A DNA stretch of 64,000 nucleotides from Bradyrhizobium erythrophlei (lineage in GTDB: Bacteria > Pseudomonadota > Alphaproteobacteria > Rhizobiales > Xanthobacteraceae): positions 5,117,001 through 5,181,000 of the forward strand of contig NZ_LT670818.1 in the NCBI RefSeq assembly GCF_900129505.1, written 5' to 3'. The notes under the pieces are model-generated. The model ran no database searches, had not been told where the DNA came from, and saw nothing but the letters and a program-made list of their open reading frames with translations. Positions 9,876 through 34,200 of the stretch are shown here, piece by piece (positions within the stretch are counted from its first letter, which is position 1; the number at the start of each line of letters is the position of its first letter). The position numbers and the translations under genes are program-made.

Positions 9876-9897
9876 CGATCAAACTATAGTGCATTGC

Positions 9898-10932
9898 ATG
9901 CGAACGAACGCAAACATTGAACTCGACGCCGGCACCAAGACGTTTGCTTCTGGCCTCCTGCCGGATTTGATAGCCACGTTGCGCCGCAGCCGTAAGGGCG
10001 ATCTCGTGGCCGTGATCAGCGGCGATCCAAGTATCGGCCCCGAGCTCGATGCATGGTGTCGCTTCACCCGCAACAGTTTGGTCGGCACAGCAGTCGAAGA
10101 CGGCCGCACCAGATGGGTGCTGCGGTACGGAGAGGCCCCTGAGAATGTGGGAGAAGATCGGCTCGTCGGCTCTCGCCTATGGCTTTACACCAACTTCGAC
10201 TGCAACTTGAGCTGCGACTATTGCTGCGTGCGCTCGTCACCCAAAGCTCCGCGGCGGGCGCTTGGTATCGAGCGGGTTCGACGGATCGCTGTCGAGGCGG
10301 TGGAGCTCGGCGTGAGCGAGATTTTTGTCACCGGCGGTGAGCCGTTCCTGCTGCCGGATATTGGCGAGATCCTTGCCGCCTGCGCTGCGGCTGCGCCGAC
10401 CACGGTCCTCACCAACGGCATGCTGTTTGCCGGACGTCGGCTCGAAACGCTGCGCGCGCTGCCGCGCGAGCGCGTGACTTTGCAGATTAGCCTCGACAGT
10501 CCAACGCCGGGGCGCCACGAGAGCCATCGTGGAATGGGGACATGGGCCCGCGCCTGGAAGGGGATCGAGCGGGCCGGCGCCGAGGGATTCCGGGTGCGAC
10601 TGGCGGCGACAGTGTCGACTGACACGGAGGCCGAAGAATTCCGCGGCTTTCTTGACGCCCATCACGTGAGCGAGGAGAACCGTGTGATCAGGCGAATTGC
10701 CCTGCGGGGCTCCGCCGCACAAGGCCTCGCCTTGGCAAAGGCAGACTTGATTCCTGAGGTGACGATTACGGCGGAAGGCGTGTTTTGGCATCCGGTCGGA
10801 GCTGAGGATGACGATCTGCTGGTCAGCCGCGAAATCTTTCCACTTGCCGAATCCTTCGCGGCCGTGCGCCGCGCCTTCGAGCGCGAACATGAGCATCAGC
10901 GCCGGTTGGCGATGATTTTCAATTGCGCCTGA
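9898..10932 (+). CDS. Radical SAM protein with N-terminal TusA-like domain
   Basis: A 344-residue fusion. Residues about 5-78 fit the TusA/SirA fold (GDLVAVISGDPSIGPELDAWCRFTRNSLVG, then a VLRYG end strand), but the catalytic CP motif of TusA is replaced (FASGLLPD). From about residue 92 it is a radical SAM enzyme: LWLYTNFDCNLSCDYCC gives the 4Fe-4S cysteines Cys102, Cys106 and Cys109, followed by the SAM-binding TGGEPFL and an LQISLDSP strand. No SPASM cluster is visible. GTG 9889 or ATG 9898 are both possible starts; neither has a clear binding site. It converges on the PhnD-like gene and lies next to the phosphorylase/glycosyltransferase operon, perhaps the same pathway. Reaction unknown. 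Confidence 0.8.
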   Translation: MRTNANIELDAGTKTFASGLLPDLIATLRRSRKGDLVAVISGDPSIGPELDAWCRFTRNSLVGTAVEDGRTRWVLRYGEAPENVGEDRLVGSRLWLYTNFDCNLSCDYCCVRSSPKAPRRALGIERVRRIAVEAVELGVSEIFVTGGEPFLLPDIGEILAACAAAAPTTVLTNGMLFAGRRLETLRALPRERVTLQISLDSPTPGRHESHRGMGTWARAWKGIERAGAEGFRVRLAATVSTDTEAEEFRGFLDAHHVSEENRVIRRIALRGSAAQGLALAKADLIPEVTITAEGVFWHPVGAEDDDLLVSREIFPLAESFAAVRRAFEREHEHQRRLAMIFNCA

Positions 10933-10962
10933 TAAAGGGCGGCCGGGTTTTGGCGCGTTAAT

Positions 10963-11808
10963 CTAGGCCGAAGGCTGCGTCAAAAAGCCTTGGTGTGCCG
11001 ATGCCTTTCGCAACTCGGCATACGCCGCAAGCTGCGGCGCAATCCATTGATGCAGCCCTTCTGCCTCGAGCACAGGCCGATGCGCGGGGTTGTCGTAACT
11101 CATCCCAAACAGTGCTTTGGCAAACTGCTGCTCCAACGAGGGGTCGAGATCCGAACGAGCAGTAAACATGCAGTGATTAAAAGGCGGCGAGGTCCAGATC
11201 TCCGTCAGCGCGCCTTCCGGCACCAGACGCTCGGTACGCACGGCATTCCAGAAGGGGCTGCCGATTGTGCCGGCATCGGCGCGGCCGTCGAGCACCGCGC
11301 GAACGACGTCGGACTCGCTTGTGCCCGTGTCACCATGCTTGCCGAGGTCGGTATCGAAGCGCAGCGTCCGGTAGTCTTTCCCCTCAACCAGTCCCTCGTG
11401 CTGCAGAAAATAAACCGGAAGGATTGCCGCATGGCCGCTGTCGCGGCTGCCGAGGGCCAGGGTGCGGTTTTTGAGATCGGCAAGCGTAGCGACAGGCCCC
11501 CCGGTGACCGCGACGATCTTGCTGGTCCAGCCCACATCAGTATCGCGCATCGCGATTGGTCGGCAACGGTGGTCGCTCCAGGCATCGGCCTGGATATAGG
11601 CGAGGTTCGTATTCCATCCGATGTCGATGCGCGGCAGCGGCTCACCGGGCATCGCGAGGAGGGCAGCGACCTGCGCCTCATAGCTCTGAAACAGCACTAC
11701 CTCGACGGGTAGACGCGCCTCCTCGTGAAAGTAGCGTCGCATGCCCTCCCAGATACTGACCACCTTCGGATGGTATGCGACGGCACCTAACCAAATCGTT
11801 CGGCTCAT
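10963..11808 (-). CDS. PhnD-like substrate-binding protein without signal peptide
   Basis: A protein of about 281 residues with the periplasmic-binding fold of the phosphate/phosphite/phosphonate (PhnD) group: WLGAVAYHPKVVSIWEGMRRYF at the N-terminus, IDIGWNTNLAYIQ, TLADLKNRTLALGSRDSGHAAILPVYFL, and a SYDNPAHRPVLEAEGLHQW C-terminal helix. The ATG at 11808, with GAGAAG upstream, begins the fold at once, so there is no leader; the ATG at 11841 adds only charged residues. Such proteins normally work outside the membrane, so this one may act in the cytosol or have another role. It is probably cotranscribed with the upstream acyl-CoA dehydrogenase-like gene. No ABC permease or ATPase is nearby. 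Confidence 0.75.
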   Translation of the reverse strand: MSRTIWLGAVAYHPKVVSIWEGMRRYFHEEARLPVEVVLFQSYEAQVAALLAMPGEPLPRIDIGWNTNLAYIQADAWSDHRCRPIAMRDTDVGWTSKIVAVTGGPVATLADLKNRTLALGSRDSGHAAILPVYFLQHEGLVEGKDYRTLRFDTDLGKHGDTGTSESDVVRAVLDGRADAGTIGSPFWNAVRTERLVPEGALTEIWTSPPFNHCMFTARSDLDPSLEQQFAKALFGMSYDNPAHRPVLEAEGLHQWIAPQLAAYAELRKASAHQGFLTQPSA

Positions 11809-11891
11809 GATTGCTTCTCGCCTATCAAGCTCTACGTCCAATTGTAATCAATCGCGATCCGAGCGCTGCCAGCGGCGCAGCGCTTCCTCAC

Positions 11892-13037
11892 TCAGAACAG
11901 CGGCATTCCCAAAAGTGCCTTGCCGATGAACTCGCGCAGCACATCGCCCGTCGGCGCCATAACGGCGCCCGCATGGGCATCGCGGAACAATCGCTCGATG
12001 GCCATATGCTTGGAAAACGCTGCGCCTCCGCACACCCGCATTGCCGCCGAGGTGACAGCGATTGCAACATCACCTGCCGACGCCTTAGTCTCAAGCACGC
12101 GCAGCATGGTGGTATCTCGGGGACGCTCGAGGTGATCGACGAGATCGTCGATCCGCGCCGCGAGCCCATCAGTTTCGATCTGCATCGTAGCAAGCTGCGC
12201 GCGGAGCGTTGGCAGGCTCTCTCCAAGGCTCTGACCCAAATGCTCGAAGCGAGCACTCTTGAGATGAGACACGGTCCCCGCCACCGCCGCCCGGCAAAGG
12301 CCCAGCGCGACTGCCGACGTTCCGAGGCTGAACAACGGAAGCACGATCTCCAGCATCGCCTTGAAGCCGGCGCCGTCATCGGTCAGCTGCAGACCGGGCG
12401 CCACCTCGCAATCATCGAGCATCATCGGCGCGGAAGCGTTGGCGCGCATCCCAAGACCATCCCATGGGCCCGCGACCGATAGTCCGGCCGTGCCGCCGGC
12501 GACGAGATAAAGGGTCGAATCCGTGGGAGTCTCACCTTCAGGAGCCAGCGCAGAGACAACATAGCTTTGCGCATAACCGGCGCTCGTTACCCATGATTTT
12601 TTGGCCGTGAGGTGCACATTTACAGCGTTGCGCTTTGCTCGCGATACGGGCGCCCAGAAGTGGCTGCGCGATCCGGCTTCGCTGAATGCCAGGGTGGTCA
12701 GGTGCTGTCCGGCCGAAATGTCCTTTAGCGTCTGCGCGACCGTGGCACCCGGACGGGCCGCCGCAATTGTTGCGGTAGCGCTCACATGCATCAGGTAAAC
12801 CATCGCGGCGGACGCGTCCGCCTCCGCGAGTGTCGCGATGACGGCCGCCAAGGTTCGCGGTCCCAGGGCCGAGCCACCCACCTCCGGGGGCAGCATGATC
12901 CCCAGCAATCCGGCCGGACCAAGGGCCGCGATTGCCTCGGACGAAAATCGACCTTCCTTGTCGTTTTGCCTGGCCGCTGGCGCGAGAATGCGATCGGCGA
13001 TTCCTTTGGCATTCGAAACTGCGATCTCGTGATTCAT
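11892..13037 (-). CDS. Acyl-CoA dehydrogenase-family flavoprotein
   Basis: The 381-residue protein has the family layout: a helical N-terminal domain (IAALGPAGLLGIMLPPEVGG), a beta domain with LAFSEAGSRSHFWAP and KKSWVTSAGYAQSYVV (flavin contact strand), and a C-terminal helical domain ending ITSAAMRVCGGAAFSKHMAIERLFRDAHAGAVMAPTGDVLREFIG. The GG-F/S-K...RDA region matches FAD-dependent acyl-CoA dehydrogenases and the related DszC/hydroxylase-like branch. The usual catalytic Glu cannot be placed with confidence, so it may be a monooxygenase-type relative. It is divergent from the phosphorylase operon and upstream of the PhnD-like gene. Confidence 0.75.
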   Translation of the reverse strand: MNHEIAVSNAKGIADRILAPAARQNDKEGRFSSEAIAALGPAGLLGIMLPPEVGGSALGPRTLAAVIATLAEADASAAMVYLMHVSATATIAAARPGATVAQTLKDISAGQHLTTLAFSEAGSRSHFWAPVSRAKRNAVNVHLTAKKSWVTSAGYAQSYVVSALAPEGETPTDSTLYLVAGGTAGLSVAGPWDGLGMRANASAPMMLDDCEVAPGLQLTDDGAGFKAMLEIVLPLFSLGTSAVALGLCRAAVAGTVSHLKSARFEHLGQSLGESLPTLRAQLATMQIETDGLAARIDDLVDHLERPRDTTMLRVLETKASAGDVAIAVTSAAMRVCGGAAFSKHMAIERLFRDAHAGAVMAPTGDVLREFIGKALLGMPLF

Positions 13038-13335
13038 GACGACCTCGATAACTAAGCGCTGCCTACCTCGTTCGAAATTGCCGAACCCGCCTGCTCTTGA
13101 TGCTCCGGGACCCGCACCATCGGATCAACCTAGCCAGCTTCGGGCACGGCAAACGATGGCCGCTCCGGTGGCGGGTGCGGGCACTGGGTCGTCGATATTT
13201 TTAGCTACTACGGCCTTCAAAGTCATCTTGTTACATCACTCGAAGTTTATTTTTTCATGACGCCGACCAGAGCTTTTCTCGTCCGAGCCGCAGCAAGCGG
13301 CCAGTGCTTGCTCGCTGTCGAGGAGGACGCTACCA
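13038..13335. promoter_or_regulatory. Divergent promoter region
   Basis: This 298-bp spacer separates the leftward dehydrogenase/PhnD-like genes from the rightward five-gene operon. It contains an AT-rich stretch near 13200-13258 suited to a promoter, and AGGAGG just before the ATG at 13336. No strong palindrome was found. Confidence 0.4.
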
Positions 13336-14184
13336 ATGGCCGGGGACTGCAAAAACGAGGCTTGTCTGGTGATGGCGGTCAATGACGGCGGGGTCCCGCC
13401 CATCCTCGCGCAGAAACATTACGCCCTCCCGTCGGCATTTACGCCGGAAAATCTGCTGCGCGAAGCGCGCAGGCAAAAGCAGATCGCACGCTCCGGCATC
13501 CCCGATATCTGCGTCCTCGACCCTGACGGCGACATATTGCGCAGCCTCCTTGCTCGTGGCGAGGCCCGGCTTGAAGCGGGATGGGCCTGCTATCATACCC
13601 AGCTCTACTCCTTCAGCCGCGGTGGCTTGGATTTCGGAATTGTCGGCTGCGCCGTCGGCGCCTCATTCGCGGTGCTGATCGCCGAGGAGATGTTCGCATC
13701 AGGCTGCAAGCTACTGATCAGCGTCACCTCCTCCGGACAGATCGTGCCGATACGGCCGCCGCCATATTTCATCACCATCGAACGCGCGCTGCGCGATGAG
13801 GGCACCAGCTATCACTATATGGCGGCGTCCGACTACTCCCACGCCGATGCCGGATTGATCTCGGCGCTCAAGGGCGCATTCGAGGAATTTCCCGTCCCGG
13901 TCCTCGCGGGCGCGACGTGGACAACAGATGCGCCGTTCCGTGAAACCCAGCTGGCGATCGATGCGATGGTCAAAAGGAATCTTATGGCGGTCGAAATGGA
14001 AGCCGCCGCGCTCTATGCGTTTGCGCAGGTCCGACAAAAGCCTGTGCTGTGTTTTGCACATGTGACAAATCAAATGGGACGGATCGACGGCGATTTTGAA
14101 AAGGGCGAGGCGGACGGTAGCCGTGACGCGCTGCAATTGATTGCGATCGCCGCCAAACGCCTGCGGTCCCGGTTCCTGCGATGA
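13336..14184 (+). CDS. Nucleoside phosphorylase (uridine phosphorylase-like)
   Basis: A 282-residue member of the PNP/UDP phosphorylase superfamily. It shows FGIVGCAVGASFAVLIAEEMFASGCKLLISVTSSGQI (phosphate-binding and core strands) and the VEMEAAALYAFA motif, whose Glu-Met-Glu contacts the ribose. These enzymes cleave the N-glycosidic bond of a nucleoside with phosphate, giving a base and sugar 1-phosphate. AGGAGG lies ahead of the ATG. Its stop overlaps the next start as ATGA. Being first in an operon with a transferase and a radical SAM enzyme, it may act on a radical-SAM-derived 5'-deoxyadenosyl adduct, as HpnG does in hopanoid synthesis; this is analogy only. Confidence 0.8.
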   Translation: MAGDCKNEACLVMAVNDGGVPPILAQKHYALPSAFTPENLLREARRQKQIARSGIPDICVLDPDGDILRSLLARGEARLEAGWACYHTQLYSFSRGGLDFGIVGCAVGASFAVLIAEEMFASGCKLLISVTSSGQIVPIRPPPYFITIERALRDEGTSYHYMAASDYSHADAGLISALKGAFEEFPVPVLAGATWTTDAPFRETQLAIDAMVKRNLMAVEMEAAALYAFAQVRQKPVLCFAHVTNQMGRIDGDFEKGEADGSRDALQLIAIAAKRLRSRFLR

Positions 14185-14885
14185 GCGTCGCGGCGATCGG
14201 GATCATTTGCAAGGCGCCGCAGCCCGGCCTCTCAAAGACACGGCTTGCGACGGCCATTGGCGCCGAGGCCGCTTCCGAACTGTCCGCGTGCTTTCTGCGC
14301 GACGTCGCCGTAGCAATCGAGGGGGTACCGGAGGCGCTCGGCAGGCGCGGCTACGGCGTTTATGCTCCGGCGGGAGCGGAACACAACATGCGGCAGCTGC
14401 TTCCAGCTGGGTTCGAGCTGCTGTTACAGGCTGGCGACGATCTCGGGCATGTGCTGCTTGGCGCGGCGCGTACGCTTCTCTCCTCCGGGCACGACTGTAT
14501 CCTGCTGGTCAATGGCGACAGCCCGACCCTGCCTCCCCGTTTTCTGGTCCAGGCTATTGAAACCCTGCGCGAGCCCGGCGACCGGATGGTGCTCGGGCCA
14601 GCGAGCGACGGCGGCTACTACCTCATCGGGCTGAAACATCCGCACCGGCAACTATTTACGCAAATCGCATGGGGAACGGACACCGTAGCTCGCAGCACCT
14701 GCGAGCGCGCTGCCGAAATCGGGCTTGCCACGACGCTGCTTCCGGAATGGTACGATGTCGACGACCTCAAAACGTTGCGTTGGCTGCAGGACGAATTGGC
14801 GGGCCATTCGACCCGCTTTCGTGCTGGCGGATTTGCTCCGGCGAGCCGTGCCTTTCTCAGGGCCGCGCCCGAGATAAACCCATGA
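14181..14885 (+). CDS. TIGR04282-type glycosyl/nucleotidyltransferase (DUF2064)
   Basis: A 234-residue GT-A-like enzyme. Visible motifs are KAPQPGLSKTRL near the N-terminus (nucleotide-binding loop), LVNGDSPTLPP near the middle, GPASDGGYYLIGL, and WYDVDDLKTL near the C-terminus. These are the marks of the DUF2064 family, whose members are annotated as rSAM-associated or arsenosugar-biosynthesis transferases. The true activity of most members is unproven, and the fold also resembles guanylyltransferases such as CofC. ATGA overlaps at both ends couple it to the phosphorylase and to the membrane glycosyltransferase. A sugar 1-phosphate from the phosphorylase could be its substrate. Confidence 0.82.
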   Translation: MSVAAIGIICKAPQPGLSKTRLATAIGAEAASELSACFLRDVAVAIEGVPEALGRRGYGVYAPAGAEHNMRQLLPAGFELLLQAGDDLGHVLLGAARTLLSSGHDCILLVNGDSPTLPPRFLVQAIETLREPGDRMVLGPASDGGYYLIGLKHPHRQLFTQIAWGTDTVARSTCERAAEIGLATTLLPEWYDVDDLKTLRWLQDELAGHSTRFRAGGFAPASRAFLRAAPEINP

Positions 14886-16255
14886 CGCCAACGCCGGGGA
14901 CTGTTGCGAGGCACTTTGGCCGACTGGCGCGCTTCGCCGACAACGCGTCTCCGCAGCTGCGGTTGGCCGGCATCGGTGCCGTCCTTGCCGCCCTGACCCT
15001 TGTAACCCCCTTCGCCTTCGAGACCGCCGGTGACAATGCCTACATTGCTCTGACCATCTCCGCAGGTCTGCTGACGATCGCGGCAACTCGCGTGGTCGAG
15101 CGCGTACCGCCGTATCGCGCGCTATGGCTGATCTTTGGACTTGGAATCCTGCTCAGAGCCTATCTGCTGCTATTCAACCCTCTACTTTCCAGTGACATCT
15201 ATCGCTACGTCTGGGACGGCAGGGTTCAGGCTGCCGGCATCAATCCCTACCGCTATTTCCCTGCCGACCAGGCACTGGCGTTTCTGCGCGACGCGGCGAT
15301 CTTTCCTCACATCAACCGGGCCGATACTGCCGTCACCATCTATCCTCCGGTGGCGCAATTTTTCTTCTTCATGGTCACGCGGATCGGTGAAAACGTGACC
15401 ACGATGCGTCTCGCGATGCTGGGCTGCGAGTTCGTCACCGTTGCACTGATCATGCTCCTGCTCCGGCGCATGAGCCGCCCGGTGACGCGCGTGATCGCCT
15501 ATCTCTGGCATCCGCTGCCCTTGTGGGAGATCGCCAACGGCGGTCACGTCGATGCGCTCATGGTTGCGCTGATGCTGCTCGGCATATGGATTGCCCTGAC
15601 CGGCCATGCGCTGCGCGGCGCCGCCTTGATCGCGTTTTCGGTGCTGGTAAAGCCATTTGCGGCGCCGGTGCTCGCCGGGATCTGGCGCCCGTGGGATTTC
15701 AAAATGCCGCTCGTTGTGATCGCCGCCATCGCGCTTTGCTATCTTCCCTATTTATCGGTCGGTTGGGGCGTTCTCGGATTCCTGACCAAAGGCTATCTCA
15801 CGGAAGAGGGGATCAGTGCCGGCTACGAGCTCTGGCCATTGTTGCTCTGGCGGCTTGTGTTTGGCGAGCATCGGGGGGATGTTGTCGGCTACGCCGTGCT
15901 GGCCGCGCTGGTCCTCCTGTTCGTGGGGCTCTCGGTGGCCCGCCGCTCTGATCGCACCATCGCCTCCAGCCTTGCCGACATCAACTTGCTGTTACTCATC
16001 ACCCTCCTGTTCCTGTCGCCCAACTATCCCTGGTATTTTCTCCTGGTTACGCCGTTTGTTTCCCTGGGTGGCTCCCCGCCAACATGGGTCGTTTCGATCG
16101 GAGCACTTCTGCTGTCCGAACAACTCGATTGGGATTTCTACATCCCAAGAATGGTGACCAAATCAGTTCTGTTCGGGGGCCTCTTGCTGGCCTGGGCCTG
16201 GATGGCCTGGAGGAGCCGCATGCAGCGGGTCGCAGACGCGGGGGCATCGCCATGA
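14882..16255 (+). CDS. GT-C type membrane glycosyltransferase (DUF2029/mannosyltransferase-like)
   Basis: About 457 residues with ten or more predicted membrane helices. After the first helices comes LLSSDIYRYVWDGRVQAAGINPYRYFP, which carries the acidic first-loop motif of GT-C enzymes, and AVTIYPPVAQFFF. Such proteins use a polyprenyl-phosphate sugar and act on the outer face of the membrane. The ATG at 14882 overlaps the previous TGA, and its own TGA overlaps the next ATG. The GT2 enzyme at the end of the operon could make the lipid-linked donor. Acceptor and sugar are unknown. Confidence 0.75.
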   Translation: MTPTPGTVARHFGRLARFADNASPQLRLAGIGAVLAALTLVTPFAFETAGDNAYIALTISAGLLTIAATRVVERVPPYRALWLIFGLGILLRAYLLLFNPLLSSDIYRYVWDGRVQAAGINPYRYFPADQALAFLRDAAIFPHINRADTAVTIYPPVAQFFFFMVTRIGENVTTMRLAMLGCEFVTVALIMLLLRRMSRPVTRVIAYLWHPLPLWEIANGGHVDALMVALMLLGIWIALTGHALRGAALIAFSVLVKPFAAPVLAGIWRPWDFKMPLVVIAAIALCYLPYLSVGWGVLGFLTKGYLTEEGISAGYELWPLLLWRLVFGEHRGDVVGYAVLAALVLLFVGLSVARRSDRTIASSLADINLLLLITLLFLSPNYPWYFLLVTPFVSLGGSPPTWVVSIGALLLSEQLDWDFYIPRMVTKSVLFGGLLLAWAWMAWRSRMQRVADAGASP

Positions 16256-17325
16256 GCTCTTCCGGGGAAGCACCGGGCTCGCACATCGATCCGCGCCGCT
16301 ATCACGAGTCGGTCACGGGCGAGCGCACGGAGGTCGCCCAACGTCCGCCGGTCTGCCTTTATCTGGAAGTGACCAACCGCTGTAACCTGCTGTGCACGAC
16401 CTGTCCCCGCACTTACGAGGAGCTGGAACCGCCGGCAGACATGAGCTGGGAGCTGTTCGCGTCGATTGTCGACCAGGTTCCCGATCTCGCGCGGGCGGTT
16501 CTGCACGGCGTTGGCGAGCCGATGCTGGTCGCAAATCTGCCGCGGATGGTTAGATACCTGAAAGACCGCAGCGCTTACGTCCTGTTCAACACCAATGGAA
16601 CGGTCCTCAGTGAGCGCAACGGCCGTGCGCTGATCGACGCTGGACTTGACGAACTGCGGGTGTCGCTCGACGCGTCAACCCGCGAGAGCTTCAAGGCGAT
16701 CCGCGGCAGGGATTATTTCGGCCGCATCCTCCGCAACGTGCGTGCGTTTCGCGAGCTGCAGGAGCGCGAGGGACACACTGCGCCGCGGGTTTCGGTTTGG
16801 CTTACTGGCCTCAGAGAGACCGTCGAGCAACTTCCTGCATTTGTCCAAGTTGCGGCCGAGATCGGTGTCAAAGAGGTCTACCTGCAACGGCTGGTGTTTT
16901 TCGCCGAATCCGCCATTGGCAAGGCACAGCCGGATCAGGCCCTGTTCGCGCGCCTGACGCAGGAAGAGGCGGTCTATCTGAAGCAGGCCGAGGATCTGGC
17001 GCGCTCCCTTGGCGTGACCTTCAGCGCGTCGGGCGCAGCGAGCGAGCCGGGCTTAAGCCTGAAAGGCAGCGGTGACGGTTCGCCGTGGTCACTTTGCCGG
17101 CGGCCGTGGTCGTTGATGTATTTCACAGCCAATGGCCGGGCCTTGCCGTGCTGTATCGCGCCGTTTTCGCAACACGGTTACGACAACTACACGCTCGGCC
17201 ATGCCGGGCACCAGTCCCTGCACGACATCTGGAACGGGAGCGCGTATCGGGACTTTCGTACGGCGCTGCTTTCAGAGAAGCCACCAGAAAGCTGCGCCAA
17301 TTGCGGCTTGCGCTGGAGCCTGTGA
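16252..17325 (+). CDS. Radical SAM/SPASM domain protein
   Basis: A 357-residue enzyme. CLYLEVTNRCNLLCTTCPRTY supplies the radical SAM cysteines Cys44, Cys48 and Cys51. GVGEPML is the SAM-binding turn and ELRVSLDAS the following strand. The C-terminal SPASM region has PWSLCRRPW...GRALPCCIAPF and ends ESCANCGLRW, enough cysteines for at least one auxiliary cluster. SPASM enzymes modify peptides, enzymes or small molecules such as sugars. No precursor peptide is seen nearby, so a small-molecule or carbohydrate substrate is more likely. It is coupled by ATGA overlap to the membrane transferase and by GTGA to the GT2 gene. Confidence 0.85.
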   Translation: MSSSGEAPGSHIDPRRYHESVTGERTEVAQRPPVCLYLEVTNRCNLLCTTCPRTYEELEPPADMSWELFASIVDQVPDLARAVLHGVGEPMLVANLPRMVRYLKDRSAYVLFNTNGTVLSERNGRALIDAGLDELRVSLDASTRESFKAIRGRDYFGRILRNVRAFRELQEREGHTAPRVSVWLTGLRETVEQLPAFVQVAAEIGVKEVYLQRLVFFAESAIGKAQPDQALFARLTQEEAVYLKQAEDLARSLGVTFSASGAASEPGLSLKGSGDGSPWSLCRRPWSLMYFTANGRALPCCIAPFSQHGYDNYTLGHAGHQSLHDIWNGSAYRDFRTALLSEKPPESCANCGLRWSL

Positions 17326-18044
17326 GCGAAGTGCCCGTCGTCTCGGCGGTAATTCCGTGCCTCGACGAGGAAACAGCTATCGGTAAGGTCGTGACTGCGG
17401 TGCTGGCACAGAATGTGAGCGAAGTCATCGTTGTCGACGGGGGCTCGCGAGACCGTACCGCCGAGCGGGCAGGGGCCGCCGGAGCTCGCGTCATTGTCGA
17501 GCCGCGCCGCGGCTACGGTCGTGCCATCCAGGCGGGCATTGCCGCTGTGCGGGACGATGCCGACATTCTCGTCTTCCTCGATGGCGACGGCAGTGATTCT
17601 GCGGAGTTCATCTCTGATCTGGTGTCGCCGATCACAGCCGGACAAGCCATCTTCGTTCTCGGCTCGCGGGTACGTGGTCCACGAGAGCCCGGCAGCCTGG
17701 CGCCACAGCAACTCGTCGCGGCCCATATCGGCGGGCTCCTCCTGCGCCTCGTCTATGGTGCAAGCTTCACTGACCTGTCGCCGTTTCGCGCTATCCGGCG
17801 GGATGAATTCATACGCCTCGGCATGAAGGAGCAGACCTATGGCTGGAACCTGGAAATGCTGATGCGGGTCGCGGCCGCCCGCTTGCCGGCACTGGAGATC
17901 GCGGTCGGGCAGCGGTGCCGGATCGGCGGGGTATCCAAGGTCTCCGGCAATCTCGCCGCCGGCATCAAGGCGGCCTGGTCCATCGCGGCGACGTTTGTTC
18001 GCCTCGCGCTCGAGCTGCGACGCCAGCCACCCTCCACCATGTGA
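17322..18044 (+). CDS. Glycosyltransferase family 2 (DPM1/GtrB-like)
   Basis: A 240-residue soluble GT-A enzyme beginning at GTG 17322, which overlaps the previous TGA. VSAVIPCLDEETAIGKVV is the nucleotide-sugar binding start, VIVVDGGSRDRT the first acidic motif, and VFLDGDGSD the DxD metal site. LSPFRAIRRDEF and YGWNLEMLMRVAA are typical of polyprenyl-phosphate mannosyl/glucosyltransferases. There is no C-terminal membrane pair, so it would work at the inner membrane surface or on a soluble acceptor. It ends at the tail of the convergent methyltransferase gene with no gap. Confidence 0.85.
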   Translation: MSEVPVVSAVIPCLDEETAIGKVVTAVLAQNVSEVIVVDGGSRDRTAERAGAAGARVIVEPRRGYGRAIQAGIAAVRDDADILVFLDGDGSDSAEFISDLVSPITAGQAIFVLGSRVRGPREPGSLAPQQLVAAHIGGLLLRLVYGASFTDLSPFRAIRRDEFIRLGMKEQTYGWNLEMLMRVAAARLPALEIAVGQRCRIGGVSKVSGNLAAGIKAAWSIAATFVRLALELRRQPPSTM

Positions 18045-18803
18045 TCAGCGCGTGCCGGCACGATCTCCACAAGCAACGATGTCGCGGGGAGATTTTCGAC
18101 CAGCTTCCTCCGGTGGAGAGAACACCGCCAGGTATCCGCCATCGCCTGCGAGCTGATGTGTGGCGATCTCGCGATAGCCAACCGCAGACAGTTCGCAACG
18201 CAGGAGCTCAATTGGCGTGCCATGCTCCGACGTCGGACGCTCGAGGTCGACAATTCCGACCCACGCGCCTGGTTTCAAGGCGGGCGCGAGATTATAGAGG
18301 AAGGCGTAAGGCTGGGCTATCTCGTGATACATGTGCACGAGGATAGCGGCATCGAGCGAGGAAGCGGGCAGACGCGGATCGTGTGGTTCGCCGAGCGCGA
18401 ATTTGACGTTAGTGAGCTTCAGACGCTCCGTTCGCTTGGCGAGTTCGATGAGGTAATTCCGCGTGACGTCCTCGGCGACGACGGAGCCGGTGGAGCCGAC
18501 GAGAGGCGAGAGCCGGACCGTGTGGTAGCCGCTGCCCGCACCAATGTCGCCGACCGTCATGCCTGGCTTCAGTTCAAGAAGACGGGCGATCTCACCGGCC
18601 TCATTCAAGGAGTCGCGGTGCTCCTCAGCGGAGCGGCTTGGGCTGACGATCTGCGCAACCGGGCGCTGGGGTGAGGGGAATTCCTTTGCCGGGGCCCCGG
18701 GCGGAGCCAGGTAGCCGATGTCGGCGGCGTATGCCTGAGTTGCGCCCAGCGCCACAATTAGCGCCGCTGCGCGGGCCGGTGCCATCATGTGCCTGCCAAG
18801 CAT
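18045..18803 (-). CDS. Exported class I SAM-dependent methyltransferase-like protein
   Basis: About 252 residues. A signal peptide covers roughly the first 30 (MAPARAAALIVALGATQAYAAD), followed by a Rossmann methyltransferase core: LKPGMTVGDIGAGSGYHTVRLSPLV (motif I), VVAEDV (motif II acidic end), and SLDAAILVHMYHEI (motif IV). An exported SAM-dependent enzyme is odd because SAM is not expected in the periplasm, yet this family is common in alphaproteobacteria. It lacks the cysteine pattern of arsenite methyltransferase. The stop codon abuts that of the GT2 gene, so the two are convergent. Confidence 0.78.
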   Translation of the reverse strand: MLGRHMMAPARAAALIVALGATQAYAADIGYLAPPGAPAKEFPSPQRPVAQIVSPSRSAEEHRDSLNEAGEIARLLELKPGMTVGDIGAGSGYHTVRLSPLVGSTGSVVAEDVTRNYLIELAKRTERLKLTNVKFALGEPHDPRLPASSLDAAILVHMYHEIAQPYAFLYNLAPALKPGAWVGIVDLERPTSEHGTPIELLRCELSAVGYREIATHQLAGDGGYLAVFSPPEEAGRKSPRDIVACGDRAGTR

Positions 18804-18836
18804 GGGGGCGGAGTCCGGTTTTACGACCGATGACCA

Positions 18837-18942
18837 CTAGAGCGCGGTGAGACTAGGCTGAATCGCCATCGCGCTCTAGATTCTTGATCGAGCATGATCT
18901 CTTCGGAAAACCGGTATCCACTTTTTCCGGATCATACTCTAA
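18837..18942. repeat. Mosaic palindromic intergenic repeat
   Basis: Two adjacent inverted repeats. The first has perfect 10-bp arms, CTAGAGCGCG at 18837-18846 and CGCGCTCTAG at 18870-18879. The second runs from about 18891 to 18940, with arms AGCATGAT...CGGAAAA and TTTTTCCGG...ATCATACT around a CCGGTATCCAC loop. I recall elements of this shape as dispersed repeats in Bradyrhizobium spacers. It ends just inside the stop end of the DoxD-like gene and may serve as a transcription end signal. Confidence 0.6.
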
Positions 18943-19595
18943 CCCGAGATGTGGAAGAACCAGCCGATCAGGCCTTTCCCGTCGCGCACAGCGGGGACTT
19001 TGCGGCGCAACCAGGCATCAAGGCCGAGACTGCGGCCGGTACCCTCGACCACGAACAAGAACATCAGCAAAGCCAGGAACATGTAGGTCCAAGGCCACTC
19101 GGACGGATTGCCATAGAGGCCGATCCAGAGTTGCAGCGTATAGGCGAGGGCCAGCACGCCCACGAACCGCACCGCAAGCCCAAGCATCATCGATCCAGCG
19201 AACACCAGCTCGGCAAGAAAGACGATCGGCCCAAAGATCCTCATGTGAGGCAACACGACGTCCTTCATGAAGGTGCGATGAAACTCGAAAGCCGCGTTGG
19301 TCGATTCCTGTTCGGTCCAGTATTGCAGACCGTCAGACACCGGCAGCGGCAGTTTCCACAACATGCCCTGGAACCACATGCAGCCGATCAGGACTCGGAC
19401 CAGCCAGACTCCAAGGTGCCGGCCTGTGCGTTGCGCCGAATCCTCCTGCCAATTCCGGAACGCCACGGCAGTGCCGGCGAGCAGCAGCGCCCAGAACAGC
19501 ACCAGGATCAGATAGCGCCAGTTTCCCTGATGGAGATAATCAGTCGTCGTCGCGGTCAGGAAATGCCAGACATCGGTGAAGGGATTGGTGGGCAT
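18939..19595 (-). CDS. DoxD-like / TQO small-subunit-family membrane protein
   Basis: A 218-residue membrane protein with about five helices. Its core fits the DoxD (thiosulfate:quinone oxidoreductase small subunit)/DoxX family: LVRVLIGCMWFQGMLWKLPLPVSDGL near residues 65-90, EFHRTFMKDVVLPH, FLAELVFAGSMMLGLAVR and WPWTYMFLALLMFLFVVEGTGRSLGLD at the end. No DoxA partner is present, so a redox or quinone-related role is possible but unproven. The gene is alone between the exported methyltransferase and an exported hypothetical, all on the minus strand. Confidence 0.72.
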   Translation of the reverse strand: MPTNPFTDVWHFLTATTTDYLHQGNWRYLILVLFWALLLAGTAVAFRNWQEDSAQRTGRHLGVWLVRVLIGCMWFQGMLWKLPLPVSDGLQYWTEQESTNAAFEFHRTFMKDVVLPHMRIFGPIVFLAELVFAGSMMLGLAVRFVGVLALAYTLQLWIGLYGNPSEWPWTYMFLALLMFLFVVEGTGRSLGLDAWLRRKVPAVRDGKGLIGWFFHISG

Positions 19596-19811
19596 GTGCG
19601 GGTGCTCCCAAGAATTGAATAGTTAACGTACCCAGCGGCCAGCGGACAGGGCGCATCGCCGCGCGAGCGATCGAAGGGGGCGCCGGCCTGGTAGAGCTGA
19701 TTTGACGTTCACGACCCTCTTTCCGCAATTCCTGCGCCGCGAACGTCCAATCCAAAACTCCACCGGCCTACTACGGCGTAGAGCGTACAGTTGTTACGCC
19801 AAGCACCGGCA

Positions 19812-20570
19812 TCACTGCGCGTTGATCCAGTTTTTTGATCCCGTCAGTTTGACCGACACATCCGAAAACCAAAGCCGAAAGGGCTTTCCGTCCAGCGTTC
19901 CGTGATGATCCATCGAGATCAGGAGCGGCCCAGCCTTCTTGTAATCCGTATAGTTTGCCATCACGAGCTTGGGTGGCGGGGTCGGAGCGCCACGGTGGTA
20001 GACGATCTCCTGGATTCGCTTGTCGGTGCCAATGTAGAGGTCCCAGGTGTCGCCGGGTTGGTAGCCACCGTCCGAAGGGTATTTCGCCACGACCCGCTCA
20101 GCGGAACCGTCGCCGACGGGCAGTTTCTGCATGCCCTCATCAGTCACCGGCACCCCGTCCCATAGGACGTGGAACGCGAGCAGCAGCCAATACTGATCGT
20201 TGGAGAATGCCGGATCGACTTCTTTCTTGGTGTCATCGCTTTGGCTGCTGAGCTGCGAGCGCTGATAGTTAGCCTTTGCCAGTTTGCCTTCCTTATCCTT
20301 TCCCTCGTAAGAGATCGTGTCGGTCTTCGGGCTCCATTCCCAAGAGCGAGAAAGCTTGGCACCAGGAAATTCTGCATTGAATTTGTAGCGGATTGACTCG
20401 ATTTTCCCGAAGGAATCAAGGCCGTAGGTCTTGGCGATTTGTTTGGCAATCGGTAGGCTCTGCTGTGCCTCCGATATTTCAGGGAGGATCAACAGCATGC
20501 TGGCGGCGACAAGGCCGATCATATTGAGCCGGCTCATTTCACGGAGAGTCTGAGTACGAACACCGCTCAT
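19812..20570 (-). CDS. Exported protein of unknown function
   Basis: A 252-residue protein. A signal peptide (MIGLVAASMLLILPEISEAQ) ends near residue 36, and a soluble beta-rich domain follows, with KIESIRYKFNAEFPGAKLSRSWEWSPKTD and VVAKYPSDGGYQPGDTWDLYIGTDKRIQEIVYHRG. The latter resembles periplasmic proteins related to outer-membrane lipoprotein sorting, but I cannot name a family. The start at 20570 is favoured by AAGGAG upstream; the ATG at 20654 lacks this. No partner gene is apparent. Confidence 0.7.
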   Translation of the reverse strand: MSGVRTQTLREMSRLNMIGLVAASMLLILPEISEAQQSLPIAKQIAKTYGLDSFGKIESIRYKFNAEFPGAKLSRSWEWSPKTDTISYEGKDKEGKLAKANYQRSQLSSQSDDTKKEVDPAFSNDQYWLLLAFHVLWDGVPVTDEGMQKLPVGDGSAERVVAKYPSDGGYQPGDTWDLYIGTDKRIQEIVYHRGAPTPPPKLVMANYTDYKKAGPLLISMDHHGTLDGKPFRLWFSDVSVKLTGSKNWINAQ

Positions 20571-31222: not shown

Positions 31223-34200
31223 CTACGCCGTCACCGTGAATTGAAATACGGCCCCCCGCGGTTCATTGGCGCTCGCCCACAATCGTCCGCCGTGCGCTTC
31301 AATGATCGAGCGGCAGATCGACAAGCCCATCCCCAAGCCGCCGGGTTTGGTGGTGTAAAAGGACTCGAACAACCGTTCGACGCTCTCGGGTGTCAACCCC
31401 GGACCTGAATCCCGCACGGAGACGAGAACCCCAGGGTCGGCCTTTGCGGTGCAGATCTGCAATTCCCGCGGTCCCTCGCTCATTTCGCTTATCGCCTCGA
31501 TGGCGTTGATGAGCAAATTGAGAATCACTTGTTGCAGTTGAACACGATCTCCTTGAATCGCCGGCAGGCTCTCCGCAAGCTGAGTTTGAGCTGAAATCCC
31601 GTTCTTCTCAATTTCCCGGCTGGTCAATGCGATAACCTCCAGGATCACTTCGTTGATCTCCAAGCTATCCTTGTGCGGGGGCGCCTTTTTGACGAGGGCG
31701 CGGGTCCGGTCCATAACTTCACCGGCCCGAATGCCGCTCTCCATGATGAGTCCGAGCGCCTCCCGGACCTCCTCTAGATTTGGCGGATGGGCGCCGAGCC
31801 ACCGCATAGCGGCATCGGCGTAGGTGACTGCCGCCGCGATCGGTTGATTGATTTCGTGCGCAATCGAAGCCGATAATAGCCCCATCGTTGCGACGCGGTT
31901 CGCGTGCGCGAGCTCCATTTGCACTTCGCGGTATCGCCGCTCGCTCTCACGGGCTTCTGCTTCCGCCCGCTTACGCTCGGTCAGGTCGAGTACGAAACCG
32001 ACACCCTCATTCGGCCTTCCGTCGAACAGGGTTGCACCGACCAGCACCGGCACGCGACTCCCATCTTTCCGGAAATATTCTTTCTCATATGGTTGCGCAG
32101 TTCCACTCATCTCTAGCTGTGCTGCCCGAAGGTCGTCTGCGCCGCGCCATTCGGGAGGCGTCAAGTCCCTCCAGCTCAAACGGCCAGCGATAAGATCGCC
32201 GCGGTCATATCCTATGATGCGCAGATAAGCGTTGTTGGCATCAATGATCCGACCGTCGGCACACCACTTAAAGATGCCTATGATATCGATGTCGACCAGC
32301 CGTCTTATCTTCGCCTCGCGGTCCTGCAGATCATCATAGAGACGGATGTTCTCCAATGAGATCGCCGCCTCGGATGCTAAAAGTTTGAGGACGACGATCC
32401 GGTCGGGCGTGAAGACGTGCGGGGCCAAGTTGTTCTCAAGGTAAAGCACCCCAACCAGTCTGGTTTCCTTGAGCAGCGGCACGCAGAGAATTGAACGTGC
32501 GTGATGCCCTTGAATGTAATCGTCGGCGGAAAACTGTTTATCGCCTGCGGCATCGTGCAGAAGAACGCTCTCTTTCTTCCGAACGACGTAGTGGAGCACC
32601 GACAGTGGAAGATCCGCAGCGGTTACGCTCCCTTGCCGCGGACCGACTGCCACCGTATCGCTGCTTGTCGTGGCTTCCGCCTGTATTCGATGCTCGTCGT
32701 CTCGCGCAAGGATCAAGAGACCTCGCTCAGCACCCGCGTGCTCAACTGCTGTACGCATGAGCGTGTCGATCAGCTTCTCTAGGACGATCTCGCCCGATAT
32801 GGCTTGTGAGAGTTTTATTACGGTAGCAAGGTCCAAATGCTCGGCGGGTGTCAGGATCGTGCTCGTCGAATCGGGCAGGGGCTTCTTATCTCTGAGGTGC
32901 GGATACAGCATGTCGAGTTGCCGTACCTTGCCATCGGCCCCCCATTGCAGATAGCAGTCGCGGGCGTCCCGCAAATACGTGTCTGCAATTTTGTCGAAGC
33001 CACGTGCCTTGTAGAAGCGGGACGCGAGTTCGTTGGCGAGCGCCTCATTGTGGACAAAGCCGTTTGCTCGCGCCGAACGGATGGCCTGCTCGTAGAGCCG
33101 CTCGGCATCGAGCTCGCGGCCTTCGATCCGAGCGATCTCCGCACCCACCAATGCGGCACGGTTTTCGAAATTCTCCGGACAATTCTCCTCCCACACCTGG
33201 AGCTGCCTATAGTGATTTGCCAGAGCTTCAAAATGCTGCTGTCTCCGGTCGAAAGATGCGGGATCCCAGCATGCCGCGTGAGAAAGCGCGCTATAGAAGT
33301 GAAATTCTGCCGTTTCGAATTGTGATGGTGATGTCCAAAGCAGCCGTTTCGCCCTCAATGAGGCATCGAGGGCCGAAGCATAATCTCCGGCAAAGAAGCG
33401 GGCTTGTAGTTTTCGGATCAAATACCAGCACTCAGCCTCCGCCACAACCAGACCACTTGAAAGATGTTGTTCAAAATGAAACTCATCGAATTGCTCATCG
33501 TTGAAAACGCCGAATTTCGCGGTCAACCCGCGGAGGCTCAGGATTAGTCTGAGCTGGGCCGTGATGTCGTCGACAATGAGACCGAAGCCAAGCTTCCGGG
33601 CAAACTCGAGTCCCTTCTCGGCTTCATATTGCACCTCCGCGAGCTGATCTCCGGCCGCCAAAAGATTTGTGACTAGGTGGTTGCAGCTATAGGCCGCGAA
33701 GGTAAGGTCACCGATTTCGTTTGCGGCATCGAATGCGCGACGCACCAGATTACGGCCGGCCTGGACATGTCTCGCCCAGGGGATGACCATATTTCCAAAA
33801 CACATATAGGTTCGAGCCTGAAAGCGCTTCAATCCATGTTTTTCGACCAACTCATAGCCGAGTCGGCCGAAACGGAAGCCATCCTGATAGTTGTTGAATC
33901 GCGGTCCAGCAATGACGGCAAGCCATACATATGCAAAACATGACCCGTCGCTATTGCCGTGCTCGAGGCTGAGATTGACCATATGGCAAATGACAAGCGA
34001 AGATAGGTTTTCGTCGGTAAAATATGCCGCCGACATGACCTTTGTCAGAACATCCATCGTCGAGAGAGAGGCGGTGTCGCTCATTAAAGGGAGCTCGGTA
34101 AGGGCATCGATCGCGCGCCTTCCGAGCAGCGACCAGATCCGATCGTATTCCTGTAGCACGTCCTCGTATGTTGGGTGCGGCGACCATTCGACGCCTACAT

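What the first reader, a model, noticed from the sequence alone, without database searches (positions are those of the whole stretch)
13336..18044. Five-gene, fully overlapping phosphorylase / transferase / GT-C / radical SAM-SPASM / GT2 operon
Every junction shares a 4-nt stop/start (ATGA at 14182, 14883 and 16253; GTGA at 17322). A nucleoside phosphorylase, a TIGR04282-type transferase, a membrane GT-C, a SPASM radical SAM and a GT2 form a full chemistry set: make a modified nucleoside or sugar, release the base, then transfer the sugar to a lipid-linked acceptor. No precursor peptide or polyketide genes are present, so the product is probably a sugar or lipid, not a RiPP. The mix matches no pathway I recognise exactly; it resembles both arsenosugar and hopanoid ribosylation logic.
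Basis: partly seen in the sequence, partly recalled or inferred. Interest (0 to 1): 0.85.

Follow-up and report, generated by a model that had tools for sequence, protein, structure and literature searches.

The report
Probable methylthio-sugar transfer operon in Bradyrhizobium
Five tightly packed bacterial genes, part of a larger conserved set, look like a pathway that turns a cellular by-product into an unusual sulfur-containing sugar, loads it on a membrane lipid and attaches it to a cell-surface molecule, a kind of reaction described in mycobacteria; here a radical enzyme sits where related clusters carry a sugar epimerase.

Summary
In detail: five genes at 13336-18044 (+) overlap by 4 nt at every junction. 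They are not an orphan mix. TIGR04282, SPASM and GT2 recur together in 54 of 54 relatives' loci of 14 kb or more; the window-type GT-C is in 41 and another membrane protein in 10 more; the phosphorylase in 21. Seven actinomycete stretches carry GT2, DUF2064, a methyltransferase and a membrane protein (window-type GT-C in 3), with MTA phosphorylase in 3, a Mo oxidoreductase in 6, a GalE-like epimerase in 6, and no SPASM. In six Xanthobacter genomes the phosphorylase-like gene is followed by the only methylthioribose kinase, while MtnA and MTAP are absent. Best reading: a methylthioxylose (MTX)-like pathway: MTA to methylthioribose-1-P, activation by TIGR04282, editing (probably epimerisation) by SPASM, polyprenyl-phosphate sugar by GT2, transfer outside the membrane by GT-C. 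Arsenosugar, hopanoid and general selenium readings fail. A 2024 paper calls it unclear whether MTX transfer exists outside lipoarabinomannan. No biochemistry exists; SPASM reaction, phosphorylase substrate, exact sugar and acceptor are inferred, and no M. tuberculosis protein was compared.

The parts
13320..13326 (+). Shine-Dalgarno-like GAGGAGG before the first gene
   Evidence: read from the sequence
13336..14184 (+). nucleoside phosphorylase/nucleosidase-fold protein (NP): proposed to cleave MTA (or 5'-deoxyadenosine) to the free or 1-phosphorylated 5-modified ribose
   Evidence: PF01048 81 bits; model pLDDT 85.7, Foldseek's first eight hits are S. solfataricus MTAP but VIA ties PNP, UP, MTAP and MTAN; a Ser invariant in 21 of 21 stands where DeoD/UP carry an Arg, whose phosphate-binding role is recalled; followed by MTR kinase in 6 Xanthobacter genomes
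14181..14885 (+). TIGR04282/DUF2064 nucleotidyltransferase-like protein: proposed to make NDP-sugar from the sugar 1-phosphate
   Evidence: TIGR04282 157.4 bits, cut-off 134; DUF2064 91.7; PDB relative 3cgx 'putative nucleotide-diphospho-sugar transferase' 3e-19; conserved K..PG..KTRL and N.DSPTLP
14882..16255 (+). membrane GT-C glycosyltransferase (GT87-like): proposed transfer from polyprenyl-phosphate sugar to an extracytoplasmic acceptor
   Evidence: in 10 of 54 loci a 671-aa-type membrane protein stands instead
16252..17325 (+). SPASM/twitch radical SAM enzyme: proposed sugar-editing step (epimerase) on the activated 5-methylthio-pentose
   Evidence: CxxxCxxC at 44/48/51 and C282, C300, C301, C348, C351 invariant in 46 of 46; Foldseek first hits DesII and BlsE; PDB sequence and profile hit BtrN
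17322..18044 (+). GT2, proposed polyprenyl-phosphate sugar synthase (MtxS-like role)
   Evidence: Glycos_transf_2 83.3 bits; below-cut-off similarity to AglJ 107.7 and PpgS 57.2; DPM synthase 5mlz 4e-4, with GpgS glucosyl-3-phosphoglycerate synthases scoring better, 1e-11; 36% to the GT2 of the MTAP-bearing Arthrobacter cluster
18045..18803 (-). class I SAM methyltransferase; possible member, role unassigned
   Evidence: Methyltransf_25 and PCMT hits; in 16 of 54 loci of 14 kb or more, all from the window's own group; no counterpart in Miltoncostaea
18939..19595 (-). DoxD/DoxX-like membrane protein, probable member of the set
   Evidence: DoxD 24.2 bits, cut-off 22.7; DoxD in 28 of 54 loci of 14 kb or more; DoxX in the Miltoncostaea cluster, 25% over 110 aa, 1e-5
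9889..10932 (+). second radical SAM protein, Rv1681 family, accessory module
   Evidence: NF049973 491.8 bits, cut-off 380; 41% to the radical SAM gene in the Miltoncostaea cluster
10963..11841 (-). PhnD-type binding-protein-like gene, Rv1680-like, accessory module
   Evidence: NF049985 299.6 bits (below cut-off 400), Phosphonate-bd 118.6; 37% to the Miltoncostaea counterpart
11892..13037 (-). acyl-CoA-dehydrogenase-like gene, Rv1679/FadE16-like, accessory module
   Evidence: NF049984 436.8 bits (below cut-off 600); 47% to the Miltoncostaea counterpart

Best explanation
The operon is the donor-synthesis and transfer machinery for a 5-deoxy-5-methylthio-pentofuranose, working like the mycobacterial methylthioxylose (MTX) cap pathway but with a radical SAM enzyme where related actinomycete clusters have an SDR epimerase. 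Steps, all inferred: (1) MTA is split by the NP gene product or by the housekeeping MTAP, giving 5-methylthioribose or its 1-phosphate (with MTR kinase where needed); (2) the TIGR04282 protein converts the 1-phosphate to an NDP-sugar; (3) the SPASM radical SAM enzyme edits the sugar ring, most likely ribo to xylo epimerisation at C3; (4) the GT2 moves it to polyprenyl phosphate; (5) the GT-C transfers it to an envelope glycan or lipid outside the membrane. In many relatives a molybdopterin enzyme with cytochrome b561 may set the thioether/sulfoxide state of the exported sugar. Shown here: gene content, conservation, family assignments, co-occurrence and replacement patterns. Not shown: any activity.
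For: TIGR04282, SPASM (by construction) and GT2 in 54 of 54 loci of 14 kb or more; window-type GT-C in 41 and a different membrane protein in 10, never both, neither in 3, as expected if the acceptor transferase is the changing part. Seven actinomycete stretches: GT2, DUF2064 and a methyltransferase in 7 of 7 (the first two partly by selection), window-type GT-C in 3 and another membrane-protein family in 4, GalE-like epimerase in 6, Mo oxidoreductase in 6, MTAP in 3, SPASM and NP in 0; MTAP over the NCBIfam cut-off in Rhodococcus and Kitasatospora, just under it in Arthrobacter. Window GT-C, GT2 and TIGR04282 match the MTAP-bearing Arthrobacter cluster at 30%, 36% and 26% (E 3e-27, 1e-26, 2e-9). 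Six of 6 Xanthobacter genomes searched lack mtnA and MTAP, and their only MTR kinase match lies in this cluster after NP; mtnA is present in the 16 other genomes and all 13, MTAP in the 20 others (kinase). SPASM model: Foldseek rank 1 DesII, rank 2 BlsE, enzymes that edit a sugar nucleotide or nucleoside (recalled); BtrN 1.6e-15 by profile. Mo enzyme and cytochrome b561 in the same 24 of 54 loci; MTX occurs also as its sulfoxide (PMC9912281, passages). MtxS/MtxT roles: PMC8780516, figure legend. MTA as origin of MTX: PMC11127046, passage.
Confidence: 0.55

Rival explanations
1. The SPASM enzyme forms a 5'-deoxyadenosyl adduct on a lipid or small molecule, NP removes adenine and the adduct sugar is activated and transferred.
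For: Same gene types as that logic; NP-fold protein present in 21 of 54 loci of 14 kb or more.
Against: SPASM scores HpnH 35 bits against a cut-off of 225; the closest solved relatives by Foldseek and sequence are DesII, BlsE and BtrN, which abstract H from their substrates rather than add adenosine (recalled). NP is missing from 33 of 54 loci. The MTAP-bearing actinomycete stretches L105, L107 and L114 list no radical SAM gene.
Confidence: 0.12
2. The operon modifies an ordinary activated sugar (for example a hexose); NP, and MTR kinase where present, only clear the 5'-deoxyadenosine by-product of the radical SAM enzyme.
For: 5'-deoxyadenosine inhibits radical SAM enzymes, and the MTR-kinase relative DrdK accepts 5-deoxyribose and 5-methylthioribose about equally (PMC6079011, passages). 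The Ser at the recalled phosphate-Arg position would suit a nucleosidase. NP and kinase presence is uneven.
Against: Six Xanthobacter genomes have no mtnA-type isomerase match to take 5-deoxyribose-1-P or MTR-1-P further. MTAP sits in three actinomycete stretches that list no radical SAM gene, so no 5'-deoxyadenosine is made there by such a partner. No sugar-nucleotide synthesis gene other than TIGR04282 is in the five-gene operon.
Confidence: 0.22
3. A selenium analogue: SelD and a putative selenate importer feed a seleno-sugar.
For: A TIGR04553-type binding protein (one member tested: 351.5 bits, cut-off 250) lies in 12 of 80 loci and the SelD-fusion profile scores above 500 bits in 8 of 80; selA, selB and selD flank the Miltoncostaea cluster.
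Against: SelD over cut-off is absent from the window's own genome and 7 other cassette-bearing genomes; it is present in 18 of 26.
Confidence: 0.06
4. Arsenosugar synthesis, as the NCBI family name of the TIGR04282 protein suggests.
For: TIGR04282 over cut-off; the chemistry is analogous.
Against: GT2 fails TIGR04283 (55.5 of 182); TIGR04167 (ArsS, cut-off 300) is not among the 25 of 46 families listed for the SPASM protein, the last of which scores 35 bits, and reaches 34.3 for the other radical SAM gene; the methyltransferase reaches 33.9 of 263 for arsenite methyltransferase.
Confidence: 0.03

Closest known systems
Methylthioxylose (MTX) cap synthesis on M. tuberculosis lipoarabinomannan (MtxS Rv0539, MtxT Rv0541c; PMC8780516 legend, PMC11127046 passage)
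   Same: By role: a GT2 making a polyprenyl-phosphate sugar, an extracytoplasmic GT-C, a pentose derived from MTA
   Different: Radical SAM/SPASM gene instead of an SDR epimerase gene (as seen in actinomycete clusters here), UP/PNP-fold NP instead of MTAP, different hosts, acceptor unknown; sequence identity to the M. tuberculosis proteins not tested
Actinomycete plasmid clusters found here (Rhodococcus AQ5-07, Arthrobacter U41, Kitasatospora NBC_00039 and four more)
   Same: GT2 and DUF2064 in 7 of 7, window-type GT-C in 3 of 7, molybdopterin enzyme in 6 of 7 (as in many SPASM loci)
   Different: MTAP (3 of 7) and GalE-like epimerase (6 of 7) present, SPASM and NP absent; other membrane-protein family in 4 of 7
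DesII / BlsE / BtrN radical SAM sugar-editing enzymes
   Same: Fold match over most of the protein; BtrN aligned over both the core and the C-terminal Cys region
   Different: One further invariant Cys (301) aligned to a gap in BtrN; no reaction known; peptide maturases SkfB and SuiB fit as well by VIA
Arsenosugar pathway (ArsM, ArsS, TIGR04282, TIGR04283)
   Same: TIGR04282 member
   Different: No TIGR04283, ArsS or ArsM match over cut-off among the genes scanned
Three-component pentofuranose side-chain systems (PMC11127046)
   Same: Extracytoplasmic pentofuranose transfer by a GT-C
   Different: Those start from PRPP; that paper contrasts them with MTX (passage); their genes were not searched for here

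Membership tests
Methylthioxylose (MTX) pathway | GT2 that makes the polyprenyl-phosphate sugar (MtxS type) | tested here: inconclusive
   GT2 fold and similarity to polyprenyl-phosphate sugar synthases below cut-offs; 36% to the GT2 of an MTAP-bearing actinomycete cluster; Rv0539 itself not available
Methylthioxylose (MTX) pathway | GT-C transferase using the lipid-linked donor (MtxT type) | tested here: inconclusive
   30-38% to the membrane protein of the MTAP-bearing Arthrobacter and Kitasatospora clusters; no match at E 1e-6 to those of Rhodococcus, Mycobacteroides and two Streptomyces; Rv0541c not available
Methylthioxylose (MTX) pathway | MTA as the origin of the sugar | tested here: inconclusive
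   NP-MTR kinase with no MTAP and no mtnA in 6 of 6 Xanthobacter genomes; NP substrate not known; 8 of 16 NP-bearing genomes lack the kinase
Methylthioxylose (MTX) pathway | SDR epimerase in the cluster, as in the actinomycete clusters (for M. tuberculosis recalled only) | tested here: not met
   No Arthrobacter- or Rhodococcus-type epimerase hit in any of 80 SPASM loci; one weak Kitasatospora-type hit in L101 (38.6% over 88 aa); other epimerase types not searched for
Methylthioxylose (MTX) pathway | 5-deoxy-5-methylthio-xylofuranose on the product | not testable with these tools
   needs glycan chemistry
Arsenosugar biosynthesis | ArsS radical SAM protein (TIGR04167) | tested here: not met
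   not among the 25 of 46 families listed for the SPASM protein (last listed 35 bits; cut-off 300); the other radical SAM gene reaches 34.3
Arsenosugar biosynthesis | TIGR04283 glycosyltransferase | tested here: not met
   GT2 55.5 bits, cut-off 182
Arsenosugar biosynthesis | TIGR04282 protein | tested here: met
   157.4 bits, cut-off 134
Hopanoid ribosylation (HpnH/HpnG) | HpnH adenosyl-hopene transferase | tested here: not met
   SPASM 35 bits, cut-off 225; Rv1681-type protein 52 bits
Seleno-sugar pathway | selenophosphate synthetase SelD in the genome | tested here: not met
   no match over cut-off in G000; over cut-off in 18 of 26 cassette genomes
Radical SAM epimerases | Cys hydrogen donor (NeoN Cys249, PMC10991966 passage) | tested here: inconclusive
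MTA phosphorylase / nucleosidase (NP gene) | UP/PNP-superfamily fold with MTA activity | tested here: inconclusive

The most novel reading that the evidence does not exclude
A radical SAM/SPASM enzyme epimerises (or otherwise edits at a ring carbon) an NDP-activated 5-methylthioribose, and with the TIGR04282, GT2 and GT-C proteins it builds a methylthio-pentofuranose glycan cap in plant-associated and soil Alphaproteobacteria: a methylthio-sugar pathway outside mycobacteria that branches off methionine salvage, with a Mo/cytochrome b561 pair toggling thioether and sulfoxide at the cell surface.
Probability: 0.35. Interest if true: 0.85.

Novelty: new variant of a known kind. Interest (0 to 1): 0.7.

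Why it matters
If true, a sugar that the papers seen here report from mycobacterial lipoarabinomannan would be made by soil and plant bacteria that are easy to grow. (The literature lists were capped, 25 of 40 hits listed and 30 of 113, and judged by title or passage, so wider reports may exist.) It would give these TIGR04282 proteins, named 'arsenosugar' by NCBI, a different job, show a branch of methionine salvage used for building, and offer a radical SAM enzyme in the place of an SDR epimerase. PMC11127046 says it is unclear whether MTX transfer exists outside lipoarabinomannan; these loci make that directly testable.

Tried and rejected
Arsenosugar, hopanoid and general selenium readings: rejected for the reasons given in the rivals. 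RiPP reading: no precursor gene was recognised in annotated clusters; short ORFs were not searched systematically. The neighbouring Rv1679/Rv1680/Rv1681-like genes were first taken for unrelated neighbours; the Miltoncostaea cluster changed that. A search of print for Rv1679-Rv1681 found no paper holding two of the terms. NP as a clear nucleosidase: weakened because 8 of 16 NP-bearing genomes have no MTR kinase over cut-off. Foldseek's MTAP-first ranking for NP was not kept as evidence of substrate once VIA showed ties. A first count of a GT-C in 7 of 7 actinomycete stretches was corrected to 3 of 7 of the window's type plus 4 of 7 of another family, because two of those queries had matched themselves. 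Consensus promoter scan: none found, 1.7 expected; terminator-like sites 7 against 6.0 expected: uninformative. Distribution: 3 of 398 Pseudomonadota genomes at E 1e-40, all in the window's genus; 10 of the 60 same-genus genomes (own included) carry a close copy, so it is an accessory trait. Paper searches (arsenosugar, TIGR04282) gave nothing of use. Angala 2017 (PMC5357196), the primary MTX paper, is not held; Rv0535, Rv0536 and Rv0540 as further MTX-locus genes are recalled only. Papers PMC8780516, PMC11127046, PMC8081860, PMC3229680, PMC10675199, PMC10991966, PMC9912281 and PMC6079011 were seen as passages only.

Full report
What is there. Five genes on the + strand between 13336 and 18044 overlap by four bases at each junction. 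They are a nucleoside phosphorylase-fold protein (NP), a TIGR04282/DUF2064 protein, a polytopic GT-C, a radical SAM protein with a SPASM/twitch C terminus, and a GT2. The genome G000 is one 9.18-Mb contig; its nearest named relatives in the scan are Bradyrhizobium and Bradyrhizobiaceae, so I take it to be a Bradyrhizobium, by inference.

How conserved it is. One scan of genome contigs matched 218 stretches, 180 of which encode relatives of the SPASM protein; the best 80 loci (L023-L102) were kept, from Bradyrhizobium, Xanthobacteraceae, Methylobacterium, Beijerinckiaceae, Hyphomicrobiaceae, Sphingomonas, Acetobacteraceae and others. With profiles built from the loci themselves (hmmsearch E 1e-6), the 54 loci of at least 14 kb hold SPASM in 54 (by construction), TIGR04282 in 54, GT2 in 54, the window-type GT-C in 41, a 671-aa-type membrane protein without Pfam match in 10, never both, and neither in 3 (L035, L057, L089). 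Zero overlap would have a chance of about 1e-8 if loci were independent, which they are not. Two of the TIGR04282 hits are weak (L035 and L069, 90 and 70 bits). NP is in 21 of 54. In the window's genus 10 of 60 genomes (own included) have a close copy and in a sample of the phylum 3 of 398.

Accessory modules. Three kinds appear beside the core. (A) cytochrome b561 plus a molybdopterin-domain (Oxidored_molyb) enzyme, in the same 24 of 54 loci; the enzyme's nearest NCBIfam is the methionine-sulfoxide reductase MsrP, 77.9 bits under a cut-off of 207. (B) a phosphonate-type ABC transporter whose tested binding protein passes TIGR04553, an oxidoreductase-SelD fusion, a methyltransferase and another radical SAM gene; the binding protein is in 10 of 54 loci, never with A. 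(C) in the window's own group, an Rv1681-family radical SAM gene, an Rv1680-like binding protein, an Rv1679/FadE16-like dehydrogenase, a methyltransferase and DoxD. The actinobacterium Miltoncostaea oceani has much of this in one stretch: DoxX, an Rv1681-type radical SAM gene (225.5 bits of 380), a GT-C/GT2 fusion, DUF2064, the dehydrogenase, the binding protein and a SPASM protein 47% identical to the window's; no NP and no counterpart of the window's methyltransferase were found there. So the window's genes at 9889-13037 and 18939-19595 probably belong to the same system, although modules B and C are not explained.

The link to methylthio-sugars. Searches of plasmid records with window and Arthrobacter proteins led to seven actinomycete stretches without SPASM (L105-L107, L113-L116). 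tblastn over them finds GT2, DUF2064 and a methyltransferase in 7 of 7 (the first two partly by selection), the window-type GT-C in 3 (L105-L107), another membrane-protein family in 4 (L113-L116), a GalE-like epimerase in 6, a molybdopterin enzyme in 6 and an S-methyl-5'-thioadenosine phosphorylase in 3 (L105, L107, L114); NP in none. In Rhodococcus the order is Mo enzyme, hypothetical, methyltransferase, membrane protein, MTAP, epimerase, GT2, DUF2064. The MTAPs pass the family cut-off in Rhodococcus and Kitasatospora and fall just short in Arthrobacter (265.1 of 274.85). Conversely the 80 SPASM loci contain no MTAP hit and no epimerase hit of these types, apart from one weak one in L101. The two kinds of cluster thus share a core and exchange SPASM for epimerase and NP for MTAP; the membrane transferase changes within both kinds. 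The split follows phylum except for Miltoncostaea. In Rhodococcus the Mo enzyme carries a weak cytochrome b561-like N-terminal match (21.6 bits, under its cut-off of 30.1), hinting at a fused form of module A.

Mycobacteria cap lipoarabinomannan with 5-deoxy-5-methylthio-xylofuranose: Rv0539 (MtxS) forms the C50-phosphate-linked sugar and Rv0541c (MtxT) transfers it (PMC8780516, figure legend). The enzyme is a GT-C, the donor is lipid-linked, the sugar starts from MTA and, says PMC11127046 (passage), it is unclear whether the reaction exists outside lipoarabinomannan. The sugar occurs also as the sulfoxide in M. tuberculosis and M. kansasii (PMC9912281, passages), which would suit module A. 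No M. tuberculosis sequence could be fetched, so kinship with MtxS and MtxT themselves is untested; the parallel rests on role and on the actinomycete clusters.

Metabolic evidence. In Xanthobacter, NP is followed by a methylthioribose kinase (TIGR01767, 449 bits in L068). In the six Xanthobacter genomes searched (of seven Xanthobacter loci; L056 was not searched) this is the only kinase match (its coordinates fall inside the loci), and mtnA and MTAP have no match; one of the six is a complete chromosome (L068). The other 16 genomes and all 13 have mtnA, and all 20 others have MTAP. MTR-1-phosphate made in Xanthobacter has no salvage isomerase, so this cluster is its natural outlet. Limits: the six are one genus; the kinase relative DrdK also takes 5-deoxyribose (PMC6079011, passages); and of 16 NP-bearing genomes, eight lack a kinase over cut-off (the six Xanthobacter, G000 and G122 have one). 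Where MTAP exists, NP may be dispensable, which fits its patchy presence.

Verdict. Best reading: a methylthio-pentose donor and transfer pathway, a variant of the MTX kind, confidence 0.55. It is not filed as a member of the MTX pathway, because the epimerase feature is not met and the product is unknown.

Noticed in passing
L053, L055, L058, L063, L067, L068: These Xanthobacter genomes give no match for MTAP or MtnA, i.e. for ordinary methionine salvage, and their single MTR kinase match lies inside this cluster.
   Followed up: partly
L045, L047, L054, L070, L079, L081, L082, L085: A recurring block next to the cassette: phosphonate-type ABC transporter with TIGR04553-like binding protein, methyltransferase, and in part a SelD fusion and a second radical SAM gene; function unknown.
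   Followed up: partly
L104:4681-19004: The Miltoncostaea oceani plasmid carries selA, selB and selD next to the cluster; its TIGR04282 protein has a C-terminal NudE-like match (73 bits, below cut-off), and the 295-aa gene before SPASM matches DUF2515.
   Followed up: no
L058:14117-16132: A 671-aa membrane-type protein without any Pfam match stands in place of the GT-C in 10 loci, mostly Xanthobacteraceae; possibly a new GT-C family.
   Followed up: no
L113:11413-12762 and L114:4683-6044: A second membrane-protein family (59% identical to each other, PMT_2 21.8 bits below cut-off in L113) takes the GT-C place in four actinomycete clusters.
   Followed up: partly
L108, L109: Methylobacterium plasmids carry the cassette with cytochrome b, Mo enzyme and a PLP aminotransferase directly after GT2, so it is plasmid-borne there.
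   Followed up: no
window 31223-36742: A 1839-aa protein with Ser/Thr kinase, AAA, GAF, PAS and histidine kinase domains on the - strand.
   Followed up: no
window 12001-20000: GC is 0.62 here against 0.54-0.63 elsewhere in the window; no island border was sought.
   Followed up: no
L035 and L036: B. cenepequi has two copies of the cassette; in L035 the TIGR04282 and GT2 matches fall into pieces and no GT-C was found.
   Followed up: no
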